Of a stretch of DNA of 64,000 nt, positions 4,342-15,924 are shown piece by piece. Source of the DNA: Acidobacteriota bacterium. Lineage in GTDB: Bacteria; Acidobacteriota; Terriglobia; Acidiferrales; UBA7541. The first letter of the stretch is position 1; every line of letters begins with the position of its first letter. A program made the position numbers and the translations under genes. The stretch covers positions 124,001 through 188,000 of the forward strand of contig QHZD01000017.1 of NCBI GenBank assembly GCA_003225315.1. The letters run 5' to 3'. The notes under the pieces are model-generated. The model ran no database searches and was not told where the DNA came from. It saw only the letters and a list, made by a program, of their open reading frames with translations.

Positions 4342-5448
4342 TCAGGCCAGGCGTTCTTTGCGCACGGTAAGTTTGTCGATGCGGTCGAGGCGCGGTTCAA
4401 ATCCAATGCCCGGACCGGTTGGTACGCGAATCGTACCCTTCGGCGACACGGCGACTTCGGGATCGATAATGTCTTCTTCCCAATAGCGCTTACTGGCGCT
4501 CACGTCGCCGGGGAGTATGAAGTTAGGTAATGTCGAAAGTGCAATATTGTGCGCGCGGCCGATGCCGGATTCCACCATCCCGCCGCACCACACGGGGATT
4601 CCATGTTGTTGGCAAAGATCGTGAATGCGCCGCGCAACCGCGTGTCCGCCGACGCGCCCAAGTTTGATGTTGATGATTTTGCAGGCGCCCAACTCGATGG
4701 CGGCGCGCGCCTGCTCTTCCGAGTGGATGCACTCGTCCAGGCAGATCGGTGTGTCCAGCCTTTTCTGCAGTTCGATGTGGCTGTAGAGATCGTCCCACCC
4801 CAGCGGCTGCTCGATCATCATCAGGTAGAAGCCTTCGAGTTGCTTAAGGAGCGGCCAGTCCTTGAGGGTGTAGGCAGAGTTGGCGTCGACCATCAGCTTG
4901 ATGCGCGGAAAGTCCTGCCGCAAGCGGCGCACCAGCTCCAGGTCTTTCCCTGGCTTGATTTTTATCTTGACGCGCTGATACCCGGCCGCAAGTTCCTTTT
5001 GCACAGCCGCCGCAAGTTCATCCAGCGATTCCTTGATTCCAACCGAGACGCCGCAAGCGATCTCCTGGCGAACGCCGCCAATTAATTTTGCAAGCGGAAC
5101 GCCCTTTTGTCTGGCCTCCGCATCCCATACGGCTGCTTCCAGGGCAGCCTTGGCCATGTTGTGTCCGCGGACACGCTTGAGCAAATCCCAGACATCATTT
5201 GCTGTTGCGAATTCCTTACCTTTGATCAGCGGCCAAAGGAAATCGCGAAAGATGAACCACGCGGTATCGATCATTTCCGGGCTGTAGTATGGCGACTCGC
5301 CCGCGACGCATTCCGCCCAGCCCGTCACTCCGTCCACGTTCACCTGCACCAGCAGAATGCGGCGCGCCTCCGTGCGTTCCATACTGGTTTCGAACGGTGC
5401 GACCAACTTCATCCGGATTTCCTGCAGAGTGACCTCGTGTATTCGCAT
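4342..5448 (-). CDS. menC: o-Succinylbenzoate synthase / N-succinylamino acid racemase
   Basis: Enolase-superfamily protein of the OSBS/NSAR (MenC type 2) group, 368 residues from the ATG at 5448. That start is chosen because the longer frame would run into the preceding GNAT gene and adds 50 residues without homology. The active-site set is complete: KIKIK (K163 and K165), D188 in VDAN, E213 in IEQP, D238 in CLDE, and K262 in NIKLGR. Proteins of this group either dehydrate SHCHC to o-succinylbenzoate in menaquinone synthesis or racemise N-succinyl amino acids. No men gene is nearby, whereas a GNAT acyltransferase sits 25 bases upstream, which favours the racemase role. The activity is inferred. 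Confidence 0.85.
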   Translation of the reverse strand: MRIHEVTLQEIRMKLVAPFETSMERTEARRILLVQVNVDGVTGWAECVAGESPYYSPEMIDTAWFIFRDFLWPLIKGKEFATANDVWDLLKRVRGHNMAKAALEAAVWDAEARQKGVPLAKLIGGVRQEIACGVSVGIKESLDELAAAVQKELAAGYQRVKIKIKPGKDLELVRRLRQDFPRIKLMVDANSAYTLKDWPLLKQLEGFYLMMIEQPLGWDDLYSHIELQKRLDTPICLDECIHSEEQARAAIELGACKIINIKLGRVGGHAVARRIHDLCQQHGIPVWCGGMVESGIGRAHNIALSTLPNFILPGDVSASKRYWEEDIIDPEVAVSPKGTIRVPTGPGIGFEPRLDRIDKLTVRKERLA

Positions 5449-5473
5449 GATGGCTCGGTCGATGAACCTTATC

Positions 5474-6214
5474 CTAGAAATCGCTCCAGGGAGCAAGCAG
5501 ATAAGCCTGATTTCCAGGCCCCGTTCGCAAAGCGACTGCCGCATAGCCCTTGGCAAACCATTTCGTGAACTCTTCCCGCAAGCGCTTCTGGACCGCACCG
5601 ACTTGCGGAGAATCCTCCCGTTGCCAGCGCTCCAGTTCCGTCGGCAATTCGATAACCGCCGGAGCCTCTGCTGGGTCTTTGACTAGATTCTCGATTGCGG
5701 CAACCACGCGCGCGGAATCCAGGTGCCACTCGACCAGCAGCCGGTCGGTCTCCAATCCCCTGTGCAGTGGGCTGGTCGTGACGCCATACAAATTTGGCTG
5801 GTATTCCCGGCAGATGGCGCCCAGCCGGTTCAAATTGAAGTGCGCGTTGCGCAACTCAAGCGGGTCGAACGTCCATTGAACCAATCGAATTCCCCGGCCC
5901 AGCGCTTCGCTGCGCTGAAAAAGCTTCAGCATCCGGCCAACTCCGCGGTTGCGGTATTCGCTGTGTACGCCGGTCATGTGCGAGTGCAGGTAAGGTACAC
6001 GGCCGCGCAATCCAACCACGGCGAGCGTGTAGCCTACCAGCCGGTCGCCATCGAATGCGCCCAGCACTTCCCCGCCGGTGTGCGCAGCGACCACAAACGT
6101 CGTTGCAGGCTCAACCTCCAGGTCGGCTTCCCCCCAAATCTCGCGCTGAAGGTCGACGCAACGATGAAATTCATCCAGACTCTCGCATTTCCGAACGATG
6201 ATCCCCTGGCTCAT
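5474..6214 (-). CDS. GNAT-superfamily N-acyltransferase (COG3375-like)
   Basis: 246 residues. GNAT fold features include the HTGGEVLGAFDGDRLVGYTL strand pair and the acyl-CoA loop around HSEYRNRGVGRMLK (R/Q-x-x-G-x-G/A type) followed by helix 3. The NAHFNLNRLGAICREYQPNLYG stretch is typical of the predicted acyltransferases that neighbour OSBS/NSAR genes. In Geobacillus an NSAR cluster contains a GNAT that N-succinylates D-amino acids, and by analogy this one may supply substrate for the downstream enolase-family enzyme. The ATG overlaps the mazG stop by four bases (ATGA), showing translational coupling. Confidence 0.8.
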   Translation of the reverse strand: MSQGIIVRKCESLDEFHRCVDLQREIWGEADLEVEPATTFVVAAHTGGEVLGAFDGDRLVGYTLAVVGLRGRVPYLHSHMTGVHSEYRNRGVGRMLKLFQRSEALGRGIRLVQWTFDPLELRNAHFNLNRLGAICREYQPNLYGVTTSPLHRGLETDRLLVEWHLDSARVVAAIENLVKDPAEAPAVIELPTELERWQREDSPQVGAVQKRLREEFTKWFAKGYAAVALRTGPGNQAYLLAPWSDF

Positions 6215-10433: not shown

Positions 10434-10762
10434 GGCTCGGGCAATCCCCGCAACGGTGCTCCGTCCCGCCATCCCAAAGCTTGTCATCCCGAACCCGGTC
10501 GCGCACTGGCACGCGGTGCGGGCTGCAAAGAATTGGCGCGAACGGCGGTGAGGGCTGCCTGCCGCGGGCAGGGATCCGCTTTTCGTTTTCTCGCCACTCG
10601 TCACTCGCCGCGACGACCCTTTGCGTCCGCTTGCGGCGCTTTGGCTCGATCCGTCAACGCGTTCCTCAAGCGCCGGAGGCGCGTCACCCTTTTAACCCAG
10701 CCCGTTAGGGCTGGGTTAAAAGGCAAAAGAATGGCGAGCACCGTAGGTGTAGCACCTAACCC
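10434..10762. other. Intergenic region with repeat elements
   Basis: 329 bases without a convincing gene. It holds, in order, a CATTCCGA-type composite element (10482-10590), a short patch of CTCGCCA/CTCGTCA heptads (10582-10612), and palindromic repeat copy A (10667-10755) abutting the 3' end of the transposase gene. Confidence 0.7.
10667..10755 (+). repeat. REP-like palindromic element, copy A
   Basis: Three hairpins in a row: GCGCC-GGA-GGCGC (10670-10682); a perfect 16-bp stem with a GTTA loop (10688-10703 pairing with 10708-10723, core AACCCAGCCC); and GCACC-GTA-GGTGT (near 10738-10750). It lies just beyond the 3' end of the RAYT gene. Copies B and C show the same three-part layout. Confidence 0.85.
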
Positions 10763-11206
10763 CTAATCAAAAACATATTTCGGGTCAAACTCGATTCCAT
10801 GTTTCTTCAACAACGCAACAAACTCCACATCAAAATCCATTTTCTTATGATGCTCTTCCTGATTGCGTATGTACCGAATCACGATGGGAATCACCGAAGC
10901 GCTCACACTGAATGCCGCATACCCTTGCTGCCACGCGAACTTGTGACCTTCCTCACTGGCCCATCGTGACGAGTTTGCCTTGAGCGTTGCAACGGTCTTC
11001 GACAACGTCAACACCGGAGGAATCTGAATTAGGAGATGAAGGTGATCTTCCATCCCACCCACGGAATGAACATAGATATCCAGCTTTCTACAAATGCCCG
11101 TAATGTAAGCCCACAATTTGGGCCGAAATTCGGCCTCGATGGCTTTGTGCCTTCCTTTCGTACTGAACACCACATGCACCACGTTCTGCGCGTAGGTATG
11201 GGACAC
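10763..11206 (-). CDS. REP-associated / IS200-like tyrosine transposase (RAYT)
   Basis: Y1 single-strand transposase of the IS200/RAYT type, about 147 residues from the GTG at 11206. A longer frame starts at the GTG at 11215, inside the repeat. HUH motif in GGMEDHLHLLIQIP (H-L-H) and the catalytic tyrosine in YIRNQEEHHKK. The opening SHTYAQNVVHVVFSTKGRHK is typical of the family. These enzymes nick and join single strands at hairpins. It is flanked on both sides by copies of the same palindromic element in opposite orientations (copy B upstream, copy A downstream), the arrangement expected of a REPtron, so it probably mobilises or once mobilised those repeats. Confidence 0.88.
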   Translation of the reverse strand: MSHTYAQNVVHVVFSTKGRHKAIEAEFRPKLWAYITGICRKLDIYVHSVGGMEDHLHLLIQIPPVLTLSKTVATLKANSSRWASEEGHKFAWQQGYAAFSVSASVIPIVIRYIRNQEEHHKKMDFDVEFVALLKKHGIEFDPKYVFD

Positions 11207-11297
11207 GTGCCGCACCTCCGGTGCTCCGCATCTTATATACCACGCACCCAGCGCTTACGCGCCGGGCTAAACCATGTCGCGCCTCCGGCGCTCGAAC
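11207..11297 (-). repeat. REP-like palindromic element, copy B (inverted)
   Basis: Read on the minus strand it shows the same order as copies A and C: GAGCGCCGGAGGCGCG, a diverged middle hairpin around TTTAGCCC-GGCGCGTAAGCGC, then GAGCACCGGAGGTGCGGCAC. It overlaps the 5' end of the transposase frame and is oriented opposite to copy A. Confidence 0.75.
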
Positions 11298-11412: not shown

Positions 11413-11497
11413 GAGCGCCGGAGGCGCGTCACCCTTTAGCCCAGCCCGTTAGGGCTGGGCTAAAACGCAAGAGAATGGCGAGCACCGTAGGTGCGGC
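11413..11497 (+). repeat. REP-like palindromic element, copy C
   Basis: Direct-orientation copy of element A: GCGCCGGAGGCGC, then the TTTAGCCCAGCCC stem with a GTTA loop, then GCACCGTAGGTGC. Relative to copy A the middle stem carries an A-T to G-C change on both arms, so the base pairing is preserved. Confidence 0.85.
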
Positions 11498-11551
11498 ACT
11501 CCCTTGTTAGGTTGAAGGAGCTCCATCTGCCATCTGGGATAGACTTGGCCC

Positions 11552-11920: not shown

Positions 11921-12031
11921 CCTTCCAGGTTTTGTAGGGGCCGTCACTCGCCACTATTTTCTCGCTCGCCACTGCTCTTCACAGTCGATGGTCGGTCATG
12001 TCGCCGAAGGCCTGCCACCCGCCGCTTGCTT

Positions 12032-12700
12032 TTAAGATTCTCTTAGTAGTTTTTCAAGTTCACCGATGAGTTTGAGGTGTTGTTTAGTCTCAAGTGGGGC
12101 AATTGAAAAATATTGATTGCTAGTGAACGGCACTCCCCATTTTCTTTCTATTCTGCATATCGAAGGAGCAAGGGACGCACCCACATCCTCGCTCCAAAAA
12201 TTGACTGCGCCGACTTCAAATTGTCTCGCCTTACCGTCAAGAGCTTTGGCGTCTGCGCTAAGCATCTTGGAGATTACCTGCAATTTGGGATTGACTATTG
12301 AGAGTGATGCATCGAGTTCGACTGTAAGCTGGCTCAAATAGGCTTTGTTTAAATCTGACGGTAGCTGGAAACCGAATTCCCTAGTCATTAAAGATGTCAC
12401 ATCTTCCAGGAATTCAGTGGCGTCATTCGTGGAAGATGTGGTCTCCGCCGTGATTCCGTTGTTAAAGATGTTGAGGCTAACATTGAGGGGTTTCTTGGCT
12501 GAATTGGTGAATGTCCCTAAGAGAAACGTCAAAGCGGAAGTCTTCGGGTCCACGTCAAGAGGGTGTTTTGGCGGTTTTGCAAAGTTGTATCTCTCGTTTA
12601 GCTTCTTGAACACTTCCTGTAGACTGAAACCTTGAGCACTCAGAAGTTGCGGGTTAAAGACCCACATTGATCTAGCTATATCGACGTATAGAAGCTTCAC
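12032..12700 (-). CDS. Unknown soluble protein, last gene of low-GC operon
   Basis: 222 residues with no recognised family, signal peptide or membrane segment. The composition is rich in Asn, Lys, Ser and Ile. Readable stretches are LLYVDIARSMWVFNPQLL at the start, NVSLNIFNNGITAETTSST in the middle and RIERKWGVPFTSNQYFSI near the end. Alternating hydrophobic strands suggest a beta-rich fold. The start is GTG at 12700 with AAGGTGA overlapping the stop of the upstream gene, so it is translationally linked to it. Base composition is clearly more AT-rich than the flanks, consistent with acquisition. No function is proposed. Confidence 0.65.
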   Translation of the reverse strand: MKLLYVDIARSMWVFNPQLLSAQGFSLQEVFKKLNERYNFAKPPKHPLDVDPKTSALTFLLGTFTNSAKKPLNVSLNIFNNGITAETTSSTNDATEFLEDVTSLMTREFGFQLPSDLNKAYLSQLTVELDASLSIVNPKLQVISKMLSADAKALDGKARQFEVGAVNFWSEDVGASLAPSICRIERKWGVPFTSNQYFSIAPLETKQHLKLIGELEKLLRES

Positions 12701-12708
12701 TATTCACC

Positions 12709-12972
12709 TTAATGAATCACTGGAATCTTGCTAGGTATTTCGCCTTGCTGCTTTCGACTCATATCGCTAAATCCGATTGGCCCGAGTGGACTAGGTGTTT
12801 GATATGAGATCACATCAGCTTGTTTTTGGAGTAGTTCAGCTTCCTTCTTGAGTTGTTTAAGTTCTTTTTTGAGTTCGATTTGCCGCTTCTTCTCGTTCTT
12901 CCAGAGAAGCACAGTAATTGCTAGCACAACTAAGGAAGAAGCTACGGGAGCGACCCACGGTCCAACGCTCAT
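12709..12972 (-). CDS. Small membrane protein with coiled-coil tail
   Basis: 87 residues from the ATG at 12972, preceded by an excellent GAGGAG site. One transmembrane helix (about 8-24, VASSLVVLAITVLLW) is followed by a strongly charged Lys/Glu/Leu heptad helix (KKRQIELKKELKQLKKEAEL) and a short Pro/Ser-rich tail. The topology is probably N-out or a signal anchor with the coiled coil in the cytoplasm. It overlaps the upstream small gene by ATGA and is eight bases from the downstream unknown gene. Such single-helix proteins often tether or gate a partner; the partner here would be the 12032-12700 product. Inference only. Confidence 0.65.
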   Translation of the reverse strand: MSVGPWVAPVASSLVVLAITVLLWKNEKKRQIELKKELKQLKKEAELLQKQADVISYQTPSPLGPIGFSDMSRKQQGEIPSKIPVIH

Positions 12973-13154
12973 GACTCTCCTCTGTCGAATAGAATACCGC
13001 AAACTATCAGAGCTAATCCGATTGCTTCCATAATGGTCATCCACAACCAATCAATCTGACGACTAATGCTCTTTTCTAGGGGATACAAAACCAGTATTAG
13101 AATTCCAATTTCTCTCAAGGTTTCGCAGGCTGCTCGTAGTCTTTGGTCCGCCAC
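12969..13154 (-). CDS. Putative small two-helix membrane protein
   Basis: About 61 residues if the GTG at 13154 is used, 49 if the TTG at 13118. Two hydrophobic helices (IGILILVLYPLEKSI and MTIMEAIGLALIVCGILF) are separated by a short charged and Trp-containing loop. The stop overlaps the ATG of the next gene (ATGA), which is the main reason to believe in it. The upstream part of the frame crosses a palindromic sequence, so the true start is uncertain and no ribosome site stands out. Confidence 0.45.
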   Translation of the reverse strand: MADQRLRAACETLREIGILILVLYPLEKSISRQIDWLWMTIMEAIGLALIVCGILFDRGES

Positions 13155-13267: not shown

Positions 13268-13477
13268 TTAAGCGAAGGCGAGCCGGCCGCGCGGGGCGGG
13301 GATGGGGCGGCCAAGTTCTTTGGCGGTTTCGATCCATTCCTGAATGATGATTTCCACGTTGGCGAGAGCTTCCTTGTAAGTCTTTCCGTCGGCGGCGCAG
13401 CCGGGAAGTTCGGGAACTTCGGCGATAAACGCTTTGTCAGCCTGACTCCAGTAGATGATGATCTCGTATCTAGGCAT
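13268..13477 (-). CDS. hicB: HicB-family antitoxin
   Basis: 69-residue partial-RNase-H-fold protein of the HicB type: YEIIIYWSQADKAFIAEVPELPGCAADGKTYKEALANVEIIIQEWIETAKELGRPIP. The motif EVPELPGC-x3-G-x-T-x-x-EAL (about residues 20-38) is diagnostic. It lacks a C-terminal DNA-binding extension, as short HicBs do. It starts inside the 3' end of hicA (8-base overlap), the standard hicA-hicB layout. Its role is to bind and neutralise the HicA mRNA interferase. Confidence 0.88.
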   Translation of the reverse strand: MPRYEIIIYWSQADKAFIAEVPELPGCAADGKTYKEALANVEIIIQEWIETAKELGRPIPAPRGRLAFA

Positions 13478-13730
13478 CGGCTTCTCCCGCCAATCGGTAG
13501 TTAATTATAACATTCCGGACCTGTTTCACCTGGTACGGTTTGCACTTCCCGGAGTAAGGTTGCAAGTTAAGGATTTCGGCGACCCCGTCGCGGGAAAATA
13601 GGTGGTGGCTGCCCTTGATGCGCTCCTGAAACCCAAGGCGCTTCAGAAGCTGCACCATGCCGGAAAATGGGATGTTGGCGTCAGCGCCGCCTCGTAGAAT
13701 TTGGTCGAGAAGTTTGTTCGGTCGCGCCAT
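13470..13730 (-). CDS. hicA: HicA-family mRNA interferase toxin
   Basis: 86 residues from the ATG at 13730; upstream in-frame residues do not fit the family. It is a double-stranded-RNA-binding-like toxin that degrades mRNA. The core LLKRLGFQERIKGSHHLF carries the catalytic histidine in the GSHH motif, followed by strand IL and the ...VKQVRNVIINY helix. The length is slightly above the usual 60-80 because of an N-terminal 22-residue segment. Paired with the downstream hicB. Confidence 0.85.
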   Translation of the reverse strand: MARPNKLLDQILRGGADANIPFSGMVQLLKRLGFQERIKGSHHLFSRDGVAEILNLQPYSGKCKPYQVKQVRNVIINYRLAGEADA

Positions 13731-13803
13731 GGGGGATTGAGTGCTGAAGCGTAGCGCAAGGCTGCGACAACTGGCAAGGATGGGGTCTTTCTCCTGCCCT
13801 TTT

Positions 13804-13930
13804 CTAATTTCTATTTTCTTTTTCAAAATCCGGGGAGGGGCGGAGCTTGCCGGCGGCGAGGTCTTTCAAGGCGCGGAGGCGTGTGTCGAGTTCGGCAGGC
13901 GTCAGGCGCCTCTGGCGGTAGAGCGTGCGC
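13804..13930 (-). pseudogene. C-terminal remnant of the wHTH-HNH family
   Basis: The minus-strand reading contains RTLYRQRRLTPAELDTRLRA and LKDLAAGKLRP, nearly identical in pattern to the C-terminus of the intact HNH protein ending at 15190 (RTLYRLGRLTAAELDGRLRA). Everything upstream, including the HNH core, is gone. A CATTCCGA element (14044-14085) lies just beyond the break. A decayed third copy of the family. Confidence 0.7.
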
Positions 13931-14122: not shown

Positions 14123-14371
14123 TTAGCGGAGTTGGTCTTCAGATTCCGGGGCGACCCGAGGGGCGTTGCGAAGGAATTTCATGAGGCCGTCGCCCTTGGC
14201 TTTTCCGGCGCGCTTCTTGAAGAAGTCCGCGGCGGTTTCAATTACACCCACCTTTTCGGCGACGGCGGCAGCGATCCACTGGTTCAGGGAGACACCGTCC
14301 TCTTTTGCGAGGCGCTGGGCGGCCTTCTTGACGGAGTTCGGAAGCTTCAATGGATAAGTAGCTCTACTCAT
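14123..14371 (-). CDS. Orphan ribbon-helix-helix antitoxin-like protein
   Basis: 82 residues from the ATG at 14371. The ribbon-helix-helix pattern is YPLKLPNSVKKAAQRLAKED followed by GVSLNQWIAAAVAEKVGVIE, as in HicB-type or Arc/MetJ-like antitoxins, with a basic C-terminal tail (FFKKRAGKAKGDG). The longer frame (from 14425) adds a poorly conserved leader. No toxin gene is adjacent. The sequence downstream is a decayed HNH fragment, so the partner may have been lost. Likely a DNA-binding repressor or antitoxin. Confidence 0.65.
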   Translation of the reverse strand: MSRATYPLKLPNSVKKAAQRLAKEDGVSLNQWIAAAVAEKVGVIETAADFFKKRAGKAKGDGLMKFLRNAPRVAPESEDQLR

Positions 14372-14454
14372 GGTTTCACGTATCATAGGATACTTCAATT
14401 GGCGCGCTGAGGAGCCTCTTTGCATCCGATGCTAGCAATGCTATCATTGCTGAC

Positions 14455-14703
14455 ATGGCCGCACTCACAATTCGGCAACTGGACCAGAAAACCAAGACCC
14501 GCTTGCGGGTTCGCGCCGCCCACCACGGCCGCTCGATGGAAGAAGAAGCGCGTGAGATCTTGCGCTCCGCTTTGACCACCTCCTCTCGGACCAAGGGAAA
14601 CCTGGCCGAGGCGATTCGCCGCCGGTTTGCGTCGTTTGGCGGAATCGAGATCTCCTTACCGCAGCGCGACGCCGTGCGCAAGGCCCCAGGATTCGAGGAG
14701 TGA
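14455..14703 (+). CDS. fitA: FitA/StbC-type antitoxin
   Basis: 82-residue ribbon-helix-helix protein: ALTIRQLDQKTKTRLRVRAA and HHGRSMEEEAREILRSAL are the hallmark of FitA-like antitoxins, with the conserved MEEEAREIL helix. The C-terminal part (about 45-82) should thread into the toxin. Its TGA overlaps the GTG start of the downstream PIN gene, giving strict coupling. Autoregulation through binding its own promoter is usual for the family. Confidence 0.88.
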   Translation: MAALTIRQLDQKTKTRLRVRAAHHGRSMEEEAREILRSALTTSSRTKGNLAEAIRRRFASFGGIEISLPQRDAVRKAPGFEE

Positions 14704-15122
14704 TCGTTCTGGATACGAATGTGCTGTCGGAACTCATGAGGCCGAAACCTTCCGCCCGAGTCGTGGTATGGATCGCCCAACAACCGCTGGCAGACCTCTT
14801 TACGACCGCGATCACCGAGGCGGAAATCTTTTACGGAATCGAACTGCTCGCCAAAGGTAAGCGGCGCGACGGCCTGCTGGCTGCAGCGGAAGGGATGTTT
14901 ACGGAAGACTTCGCGGGACGTGTACTCGCATTCGAGAGCGACGCTGCGCACTATTTTGCAAGGATTGCAGCACACCGTCGGGCGCTTGGAAGACCCATCA
15001 GCCACGCGGACGCCCAGATCGCAGCCATTACCCGGGCGCACGGGGCTAAGCTTGCAACAGGGAATGCCCCCGACTTTGCCGATTGCAGCATTACTGTCTT
15101 CGATCCCTGGCGCGCGCCCTAG
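14700..15122 (+). CDS. fitB: PIN-domain ribonuclease toxin FitB/VapC
   Basis: 140-residue PIN-domain endoribonuclease. Acidic metal ligands: D5 in MIVLDTNVLSEL, E41 in TEAEIFYGI, and the ISHADAQIAAIT motif (D103) with TGNAPDF near 119. Complete and of normal length. It starts at the GTG at 14700 overlapping fitA. Expected to cleave RNA when antitoxin is degraded, and held inactive as the FitAB complex. Confidence 0.9.
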   Translation: MIVLDTNVLSELMRPKPSARVVVWIAQQPLADLFTTAITEAEIFYGIELLAKGKRRDGLLAAAEGMFTEDFAGRVLAFESDAAHYFARIAAHRRALGRPISHADAQIAAITRAHGAKLATGNAPDFADCSITVFDPWRAP

Positions 15123-15189
15123 AGGGAAAGCCAGGGACGGAAGCCGGGAAGCCTGCGACAGACCGGACCCTACCAACATCACCCGACAA

Positions 15190-15924
15190 TCACTTGGATC
15201 CCTCAAATCCCACAGGGCGGAGCTTGCCTGCGTCGAGATCCTTCAAGGCGCGGAGGCGTCCGTCGAGTTCGGCCGCGGTCAGGCGCCCCAGGCGGTAGAG
15301 CGTGCGCAGAAAATCCCGGGCCGGACGGTCGCCCTTGCGCGAGTTGCATTCGAGACAGCAGGAAACCAGGTTGCGGTAGGAATTGCGTCCCAAGCGCACG
15401 CGTGGCACGACGTGGTCGAGCCCGTGCACGTGAGCGGGAGTGCGGCGAAGGCAGTAAAAGCACGCACCGCGTTCGCGATCGTGAATGGTTTTGCGGAGCG
15501 CCCAGGTTTTCAAGAAATCCGTGGTTTCGAGCGTCGCGGCAGGAGGCTCCCCGGCGGCTCCCGTTGCCCTCACCCCCACAACCCCCACAACCAATGACGC
15601 GCCATTTTTGCCCGGGCGGGCGGCGCGAATCTTCTCGGGCAGGCGCATCTCGACGAGGTGGCCGGTTTTGCACCGCTTGAGCACGCGCAAAGTCCCCAGC
15701 TCATCGAGCCGGCGCACCGCCTGGCGCGCCGCTCCGATGGCCAGACCCAGAGTGCGGGCCAGGGACATAACTGCAAACTGCAGGCGGAGCTTGCCGACGA
15801 CGAGCGAATGACGCAGCAGATAGGAATAGACGGCGCGCTCCTTGACGGTCAGGCCGAGACGCGGCGCGAGAACATCTTCGAACTGCATCCACAGGAGTTT
15901 GGCGTTTAGTTTTTTGTTTAGCAT
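15190..15924 (-). CDS. wHTH-HNH endonuclease-like protein, copy 1
   Basis: 244 residues. The N-terminal 1-100 region looks like a winged-helix DNA-binding domain (LTVKERAVYSYLLRHSL, SLARTLGLAIGAARQAVRRL, LGTLRVLKRC). Residues 101-138 form a variable Gly/Ala linker. The HNH domain has C155-x2-C158, DH at 170-171 (GLDHVVP), N185 in YRNLVSCC and C190/C193-N194-x3-KG, i.e. a zinc-stabilised HNH nuclease with all key residues. A conserved helical tail ends it. A homologue with the same layout lies at 57783-58541 and a fragment at 13804. Its biological role is unknown to me; nicking or homing-like activity is possible. Confidence 0.8.
   Translation of the reverse strand: MLNKKLNAKLLWMQFEDVLAPRLGLTVKERAVYSYLLRHSLVVGKLRLQFAVMSLARTLGLAIGAARQAVRRLDELGTLRVLKRCKTGHLVEMRLPEKIRAARPGKNGASLVVGVVGVRATGAAGEPPAATLETTDFLKTWALRKTIHDRERGACFYCLRRTPAHVHGLDHVVPRVRLGRNSYRNLVSCCLECNSRKGDRPARDFLRTLYRLGRLTAAELDGRLRALKDLDAGKLRPVGFEGSK

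What the first reader, a model, noticed from the sequence alone, without database searches (positions are those of the whole stretch)
12032..13154. Low-GC three-gene operon: two small membrane proteins plus a soluble unknown
Three genes in tight coupling (ATGA overlap, then ribosome site over the stop) encode a two-helix membrane protein, a one-helix protein with a charged coiled-coil tail and a 222-residue soluble protein. Composition is clearly more AT-rich than the flanks, and it is next to a transposase and hicAB. The layout of membrane effector plus sensor in an island with toxin-antitoxin genes is what an undescribed defence or toxin system could look like.
Basis: inference. Interest (0 to 1): 0.65.

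Follow-up and report, generated by a model that had tools for sequence, protein, structure and literature searches.

The report
TBP-fold third gene of toxin-antitoxin modules
A three-gene cluster in a soil bacterium encodes two tiny membrane proteins and a protein predicted to be shaped like the TATA-binding protein of archaea and eukaryotes; relatives of that protein sit as the third gene of toxin-antitoxin pairs, so it probably guards a toxin, but nothing has been tested at the bench.

Summary
The three genes are real: 12032-13154, minus strand, order C (61 aa), B (87 aa, one helix, charged tail), A (222 aa). They are translationally coupled and have the lowest GC in the window. The layout recurs in a congeneric genome (L007); C is clearly conserved there, B only marginally.
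A belongs to an unnamed family (22 of 399 class genomes, own included). Of 33 loci, 29 hold a full-length A (one split). There it directly follows an HTH/Xre-type antitoxin (21), HicB (1), an unassigned soluble protein (1) or a one-helix membrane protein (6, window included); in 22 of 29 the frames overlap.
Two AlphaFold models match the two-lobed TATA-binding-protein fold, without sequence similarity to TBP. In 11 of 14 A-less loci the same kind of antitoxin carries DUF3467 instead; the antitoxin tree forces at least four exchanges.
Best reading: A does what SecB-like chaperones do in toxin-antitoxin-chaperone systems, holding the upstream partner's tail; in the window the pair would be C (putative membrane toxin) and B. 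No step of this mechanism is shown experimentally.

The parts
12032..12700 (-). A: 222-aa protein, predicted two-lobed TBP-like fold, third gene of the trio
   Evidence: Open frame; family; model and fold matches; replicated with relative L063
12709..12972 (-). B: 87-aa protein, one N-terminal transmembrane helix, charged stretch and low-complexity tail; stands where relatives have the antitoxin
   Evidence: Open frame and ATGA overlap; one helix by hydropathy; marginal similarity to B of L007, z 2.0
12969..13154 (-). C: 61-aa small membrane protein of the family 'REhxVLVxVFxPLE...G', putative toxin; GTG start inferred
   Evidence: Open frame; homologous to C of L007, z 11.3; profile finds 28 of 299 class genomes at E <= 0.01, most of them weak; alignment
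13268..13477 (-). hicB antitoxin, neighbour upstream; not shown to belong to the trio
   Evidence: PF15919 E 1.4e-8
13470..13826 (-). Frame that holds hicA toxin, neighbour upstream; start not settled
   Evidence: PF07927 E 1.3e-5, just below its cut-off

Best explanation
The operon is a tripartite toxin module that works like a toxin-antitoxin-chaperone (TAC) system but is built from other parts. Shown by sequence and prediction: A has a two-lobed TBP-like fold and is the translationally coupled third gene behind antitoxins of several families and, in the window and five relatives, behind a one-helix membrane protein. Inferred: A is a dedicated holder of its upstream partner's C-terminal tail, much as SecB-like chaperones hold the chaperone-addiction tails of TAC antitoxins. 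In the window C would be the toxin, a small inner-membrane protein that harms the membrane, and B the tail-bearing membrane antitoxin or adaptor that keeps C silent while A is bound. If A is drawn away (for example by a phage protein) or lost, B fails and C acts, giving growth arrest or abortive infection.
For: In 29 of 33 loci with a full-length A (one of them split), A lies directly behind a same-strand partner: 21 HTH/Xre-type antitoxins, 1 HicB, 1 unassigned, 6 one-helix membrane proteins; 22 of 29 overlap by 4-56 nt. Antitoxin type: 19 match the antitoxin profile, L046 matches PF21716 and L065 HicB, the gene in L076 is annotated as HTH regulator. Tails of 66-151 residues follow the HTH domain in 19 of 19, 63 in L046 and 70 in the HicB partner. 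The third gene is exchangeable: DUF3467 in 11 of 14 A-less loci, at least 4 exchanges forced by well-supported branches. The same two-lobed fold from two members. A is acidic, median pI 5.5 in 26 proteins, which fits a protein partner better than DNA. TAC chaperones likewise serve HigA, MqsA and HicB antitoxins that carry a variable C-terminal extension (PMC5105189, passages).
Against: No toxicity, binding or stability data. C and B match no toxin or antitoxin family, and the C family occurs without A. The antitoxin tail is as long with DUF3467, so it is not specific to A. No shared tail motif is established. B is poorly conserved. HigB-like frames are recognised mostly by eye; family support is weak. 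SecB-likeness of A was not found.
Confidence: 0.42

Rival explanations
1. A is a nucleic-acid-binding regulator: the TBP-like saddle binds the operon's DNA or RNA and controls expression or translation of the toxin pair; the tails are incidental.
For: TBP-like lobes known in bacteria bind nucleic acid (RNase HIII) or sit in an RNA-cleaving toxin (RnlA) (PMC7221094 and PMC3710099, passages). Fold match to TBP.
Against: The proteins are acidic, median pI 5.5, median net charge -5 (26 proteins). In 21 of 29 loci an HTH/Xre-type, presumably DNA-binding antitoxin is already there. DUF3467 replaces A behind the same antitoxins.
Confidence: 0.18
2. The membrane trio is a phage-lysis-type leftover: C a small holin, B an antiholin or spanin-like protein, A a cytoplasmic timer.
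For: B matches the Rz-like spanin family at E 0.016. Two A loci lie on viral contigs, L075 with a GH108/PG_binding_3 endolysin next to it. Tail-like, portal-like and integrase-like neighbours were seen by eye in L011, L046, L008 and L109.
Against: The spanin match is weak and positive charges after the helix suggest that the tail of B is cytoplasmic (recalled positive-inside rule, no call). C gives no useful PHROGs match. No lysis gene is near the window's trio. Most relatives of A serve soluble antitoxins.
Confidence: 0.15
3. A is itself the antitoxin: it neutralises C, or other toxins, directly, and B or the Xre protein only anchors or represses.
For: One A family is paired with several toxin types, as the promiscuous antitoxin domain Panacea is (PMC8832971, search listing only).
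Against: In 22 of 29 loci the gene before A is already an antitoxin-type protein, and close relatives of these antitoxins occur without A, with DUF3467 in its place.
Confidence: 0.12
4. A is an unrelated cargo gene that is merely carried by mobile toxin-antitoxin cassettes.
For: Patchy distribution (6 of 89 genomes of the family) and low GC of the operon.
Against: 22 of 29 overlaps with the upstream frame, always on the same strand and directly behind the partner, across different partner families.
Confidence: 0.05

Closest known systems
HigBA-type toxin-antitoxin-chaperone (TAC) systems (M. tuberculosis HigBA1 with SecB-TA, E. coli C496 HigBAC) and CmdTAC
   Same: Three coupled genes, RelE/HigB-like toxin in most relatives, antitoxin with a long variable C-terminal tail, dedicated third protein that serves several antitoxin types (PMC5105189, PMC11618068 passages and PMC11980606 section 13)
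   Different: The third protein has a predicted TBP-like fold and no SecB match in Pfam; in the window toxin and antitoxin are replaced by two small membrane proteins
TATA-binding protein (TBP) of archaea and eukaryotes
   Same: Predicted two-lobed alpha/beta saddle over the whole chain, Z about 10 and 166 residues aligned
   Different: No sequence match, no detectable internal repeat, acidic, large rmsd of 4.4-5.5 A; a gene of toxin-antitoxin modules
Bacterial single TBP-like lobes: RNase HIII N-domain, RnlA toxins
   Same: TBP-like lobe in bacteria, for RnlA in a toxin-antitoxin setting (PMC7221094, PMC3710099 passages)
   Different: Those have one lobe fused to an enzyme; A has two lobes and stands alone
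DUF3467 (PF11950)
   Same: Fills the same third-gene slot behind the same antitoxin type
   Different: Shorter, no profile similarity to A; fold not determined here
HigX of Caulobacter (third gene next to higBA)
   Same: A third gene downstream of higBA (PMC13384398, abstract and section list)
   Different: HigX is a membrane-associated transcription factor that acts independently of HigBA and is not conserved in synteny with it

Membership tests
Toxin-antitoxin-chaperone (TAC) | Three coupled genes with the third downstream of toxin and antitoxin | tested here: met
   Third gene directly behind its partner in 29 of 29 loci with full-length A, overlapping in 22; a HigB-like frame before the antitoxin in 18 of 21 Xre-type loci, by eye
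Toxin-antitoxin-chaperone (TAC) | Known type of toxin and antitoxin in the window's operon itself | tested here: not met
   C and B match no toxin or antitoxin family in PADLOC, NCBIfam, Pfam or PHROGs above chance level
Toxin-antitoxin-chaperone (TAC) | Antitoxin with a C-terminal extension | tested here: met
   66-151 residues after the HTH domain in 19 of 19 relatives (L008, the longest, is matched over only a third of the domain); in the window B has about 60 residues after its helix
Toxin-antitoxin-chaperone (TAC) | Third gene is a SecB homologue | tested here: inconclusive
   No SecB model among Pfam matches of 13 members at E <= 0.1; the fold lists show TBP, which does not exclude other folds
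Toxin-antitoxin-chaperone (TAC) | Third protein protects the antitoxin from degradation | not testable with these tools
   Needs half-life measurements
TATA-binding protein (PF00352) | Two-lobed saddle fold | tested here: met
   Predicted only: Z 10.2, rmsd 4.4, 166 aligned and Z 9.7, rmsd 5.1, 167 aligned
TATA-binding protein (PF00352) | Sequence homology to TBP | tested here: not met
   No TBP match for 13 members in Pfam at E <= 0.1 nor for the profile of 17 in PDB sequences at E <= 10
TATA-binding protein (PF00352) | DNA binding by the concave face | not tested
   No coordinates at hand; the acidic charge speaks against it
HicAB | A belongs to a HicAB unit | tested here: inconclusive
   In L065 HicB directly precedes A; in the window hicAB lies 113 nt upstream with higher GC
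Phage holin/spanin | C a holin, B a spanin by family match | tested here: inconclusive
   C: only weak matches to families of unknown function; B: phrog_739 Rz-like spanin at E 0.016

The most novel reading that the evidence does not exclude
A is the first stand-alone two-lobed TBP-fold protein family recognised in bacteria, and it has been recruited as an exchangeable guardian and sensor subunit of tripartite toxin modules. It trades places with DUF3467 behind HigBA-like pairs and has also captured a pair of tiny membrane proteins, giving a TAC-like system with a membrane toxin.
Probability: 0.4. Interest if true: 0.88.

Novelty: new variant of a known kind. Interest (0 to 1): 0.72.

Why it matters
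The TAC systems in the papers I saw use SecB-like chaperones. If A fills that place, the tail-guarding principle is more general: two further protein families (the TBP-fold family and DUF3467) could fill the slot, which gives a testable function to a domain of unknown function. A two-lobed TBP-like protein in bacteria would also bear on how the TBP fold arose, since one survey states that bacterial homologues of TBP are not two-lobed (PMC7221094, passages). The membrane version suggests toxin modules whose toxin and antitoxin both sit in the membrane.

Tried and rejected
Sequence routes that led nowhere: NCBIfam and PADLOC for A, B, C, PHROGs for 13 A members, Pfam for A, PDB by profile for A and for DUF3467. 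The phage collection gave no relative of A for two queries, the plasmid collection a single distant one. A viral-contig scan with the subfamily nearest the window gave none. Hhalign shows no internal repeat between the two halves of A and no link to DUF3467. DUF3467 could not be brought in from viral contigs for modelling, so whether it has the SecB fold stays open. SecB does not appear in the fold lists shown; that excludes nothing.

Considered and rejected: that the trio is simply part of hicAB (113 nt gap, different GC), though L065 shows HicB coupled to an A. That a fixed tail peptide is shared by all partners: the pattern [YF]G[ASG] occurs in the last 40 residues of 8 of 28 partners against 1.6 expected from shuffles, but I chose it after seeing the tails, and overlap with the start of A constrains some of them. 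That the long antitoxin tail is specific to A: it is as long with DUF3467. Promoter and terminator scan: nothing above chance.

Rows dropped before counts: of 33 A loci, L051, L052 and L053 (cut or decayed) and L071 (frameshifted) were left out of the 29; L076 is counted although its A is split over two frames, and was left out of the tail test (28 of 29). L046 and L076 were left out of the antitoxin tree and tail lengths. L136 was outside the 14 A-less loci (weaker antitoxin match). The script stopped with an error after L136, so L137-L139 were not read. Most HigB-like frames, the helices of the small frames and some phage genes were recognised by eye. A GC3 value for the glyoxalase-like gene was computed on the wrong strand and is not used.

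Full report
Observation. The three genes are present as described, on the minus strand, in the order C (13154-12969), B (12972-12709), A (12700-12032). C and B overlap by ATGA; A starts 8 nt after the stop of B with its ribosome site over that stop. The operon's GC of 0.444 is practically the lowest in the window: 0.02% of all windows of equal length are as low, all starting at 12020-12032. hicAB lies 113 nt upstream on the same strand; the IS200-like transposase lies about 0.8 kb downstream beyond a glyoxalase-like gene. The hydropathy scan sees one helix in B and only one clear helix in C; the second helix of C is shorter and called by eye.

The window's genome. The window is part of a 5.0-Mb assembly. 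Two genomes that the genome search places in the same genus have contigs of the same length as records titled Acidobacteria (G023:C2 and G024:C1, 342,992 and 624,183 bases), so the host is an acidobacterium.

The A family. A has no match in PADLOC, NCBIfam or PHROGs and only chance-level ones in Pfam. Counts that include the window's own genome: 6 of 89 genomes of its family by single sequence at E <= 0.01, 22 of 399 of its class by profile, 7 of 396 of its phylum, 8 of 95 of its order with a broader profile. Two IMG/VR contigs hold it; the phage collection gave none for two queries; the plasmid collection gave one distant relative on a Bradyrhizobium plasmid, again behind a helix-turn-helix gene. 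Strictly invariant in a set of 17 are F59, G62, T91, S123, A201, P202, T205, H208 and E216; the segment YFSxAPLxTxxHL is the best conserved.

Neighbourhoods. I fetched 3.5-19 kb around the relatives and called genes. Of 33 loci, 29 hold a full-length A, one of them split over two frames. In all 29 A lies behind a gene on the same strand: 21 HTH/Xre-type antitoxins, one HicB (L065), one unassigned soluble protein (L059; no Pfam family above chance) and six one-helix membrane proteins (window, L007, L009, L011, L012, L040). In 22 of 29 the two frames overlap by 4-56 nt, in L065 they abut, in five there is a gap of 3-27 nt. Of the 21, 19 match the antitoxin profile, L046 matches PF21716 and the gene in L076 is annotated as an HTH regulator; Pfam finds HTH domains in the three that I submitted. 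In 18 of the 21 a frame that looks HigB-like precedes the antitoxin (by eye). This is weakly backed: Gp49 at E 1.3e-4 in L046 and 0.003 in L008, both below the cut-off, nothing in L036, nothing to the point in L037, nothing in NCBIfam for 7 members, and a profile of 7 whose only PDB matches at E <= 1 are M. tuberculosis HigB1, E 0.26 and 0.34.

The membrane version. In L007, a congener, the same C-B-A layout stands in another setting; C is homologous (z 11.3, 16 of 54 aligned residues identical), A is 38% identical, B is marginal (z 2.0). L011 and L040 have C and B genes homologous to each other (z 9.8 and 9.6), and C of L011 is linked to C of L007 (z 4.0); of the other pairs none exceeds z 2.6. 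L009 and L012 have different multi-helix proteins followed by a one-helix protein and A. The C family also occurs without A: 28 of 299 class genomes match at E <= 0.01, most of them weakly. In four of the nine loci I read, a frame of about 55-75 aa with a hydrophobic stretch follows C (L083, L087, L089, L108; starts uncertain), against 72-92 aa for B in the window, L007, L011 and L040.

Fold. An AlphaFold model of the window's A from 13 sequences has pLDDT 85 and pTM 0.80. Foldseek's first 29 PDB rows are TBP or TBP complexes, probability 0.99-1.00, best E 8.7e-5 (for complexes the chain is taken to be TBP from the title). VIA-align gives Z 10.2, rmsd 4.4, 166 aligned for the best TBP, with 36 such rows before the first other fold (McsB, Z 7.9). 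In the viral library the named hits include TBP-like proteins. A second model, of L063, has pLDDT 91 and pTM 0.85 and again matches TBP (best Z 9.7, rmsd 5.1, 167 aligned; first other fold Z 7.2), although one McsB chain reaches Foldseek rank 8 at E 9.9e-4. TM-scores are about 0.33-0.55 and the rmsd is large, so the likeness is one of topology and lobe arrangement, not of detail. There is no sequence match to TBP and no detectable repeat between the halves, so common descent with TBP is not shown. The proteins are acidic (median pI 5.5, median net charge -5, 26 proteins).

Interchangeable third gene. A profile of the antitoxins' first 100 residues, without the tails, finds the same kind of antitoxin in genomes without A. 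Among its 27 matches above 85 bits, 13 are known A loci and 14 are not. In these 14 no A is detectable and 11 carry a DUF3467 gene behind the antitoxin; all 11 match PF11950 at E <= 1.5e-4, seven above the cut-off and four just below it. L120, L124 and L131 carry neither. On a tree of 33 antitoxin domains (19 with A, 11 with DUF3467, 3 with neither) the two third genes are interleaved: 8 changes between A and DUF3467, and well-supported branches force at least 4 for either label; the labels are no more clustered than shuffled ones (78 and 96 of 500 shuffles as low). L008 is on a long, gappy branch and its place is unsure. So the third gene has been exchanged repeatedly behind one antitoxin type, which argues that A and DUF3467 do equivalent jobs.

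Mechanism. In TAC systems a SecB-like third protein holds a variable C-terminal extension of HigA, MqsA or, less often, HicB antitoxins (PMC5105189, passages). Phage capsid protein draws the chaperone away in CmdTAC (PMC11618068, passages), and the lambda major tail protein does so in E. coli HigBAC (PMC11980606, section 13 read). The A family shares the gene order, the breadth of antitoxin partners and the long variable tails (66-151 residues after the HTH in 19 of 19). I therefore infer that A holds its partner's tail. For the window this makes B the guarded partner and C the likely toxin. That last step rests on position alone, and the C family can exist without A.

Against this reading. 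The tail is just as long with DUF3467 (median 109 against 92); no common tail motif is established; C and B match no toxin family; a lysis-type origin is not excluded.

Prior work. Searches for TBP-like folds with toxin-antitoxin systems, for tripartite systems and for DUF3467 listed nothing, by title and abstract start, that describes this family or DUF3467 in this role; the library holds only open-licence papers, listings were capped, and I opened six papers in part. One survey states that bacterial homologues of TBP are not two-lobed and names RNase H3 and RnlA (PMC7221094, passages); a TBP-like domain fused to RNase LS toxins is in PMC3710099 (passages). HigX next to higBA is a different protein (PMC13384398, abstract and section list).

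Verdict. The finding is real and more interesting than first written: a predicted two-lobed TBP-like fold for the third gene of toxin-antitoxin-like modules, with a membrane-protein variant in the window. The fold prediction and the genomic association are strong; the mechanism is an inference.

Noticed in passing
L114, L116, L117, L121, L122, L123, L125, L130, L133, L134, L135: DUF3467 (PF11950) is the third gene behind HigA-like antitoxins with long tails: a possible function for this domain of unknown function.
   Followed up: partly
L131, antitoxin frame: A HigA-like antitoxin domain is continued by 424 residues in one frame, with neither A nor DUF3467 behind it; perhaps a fused third component.
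   Followed up: no
window 10669-10755 and 11414-11504: Two copies of a palindromic repeat (68 nt, 90% identical, plus a 24-nt unit) flank the IS200-like transposase gene at 10763-11215; looks like a REP-associated transposase with its REP-like repeats (label recalled).
   Followed up: no
window 14123-15924: More mobile or toxin-type genes beside the trio: an orphan HicB-like RHH gene (14123-14425, -), FitA-like antitoxin and PIN toxin (14455-15122, +), HNH endonuclease (15190-15924, -).
   Followed up: no
L083, L087, L089, L108, L109: The C-type small membrane protein occurs without A; in L083, L087, L089 and L108 a second small hydrophobic frame follows it, and in L109 a phage portal-like frame (by eye) follows.
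   Followed up: partly
L076 (NZ_CP100605.1), 4843-5525: A distant relative of A on a Bradyrhizobium conjugative plasmid, split over two frames and preceded by an HTH gene; the family reaches Pseudomonadota.
   Followed up: partly
L065:5062-5418: A 118-aa frame before the HicB that precedes A has no Pfam match although a HicA toxin would be expected there; possibly a new toxin partner.
   Followed up: no
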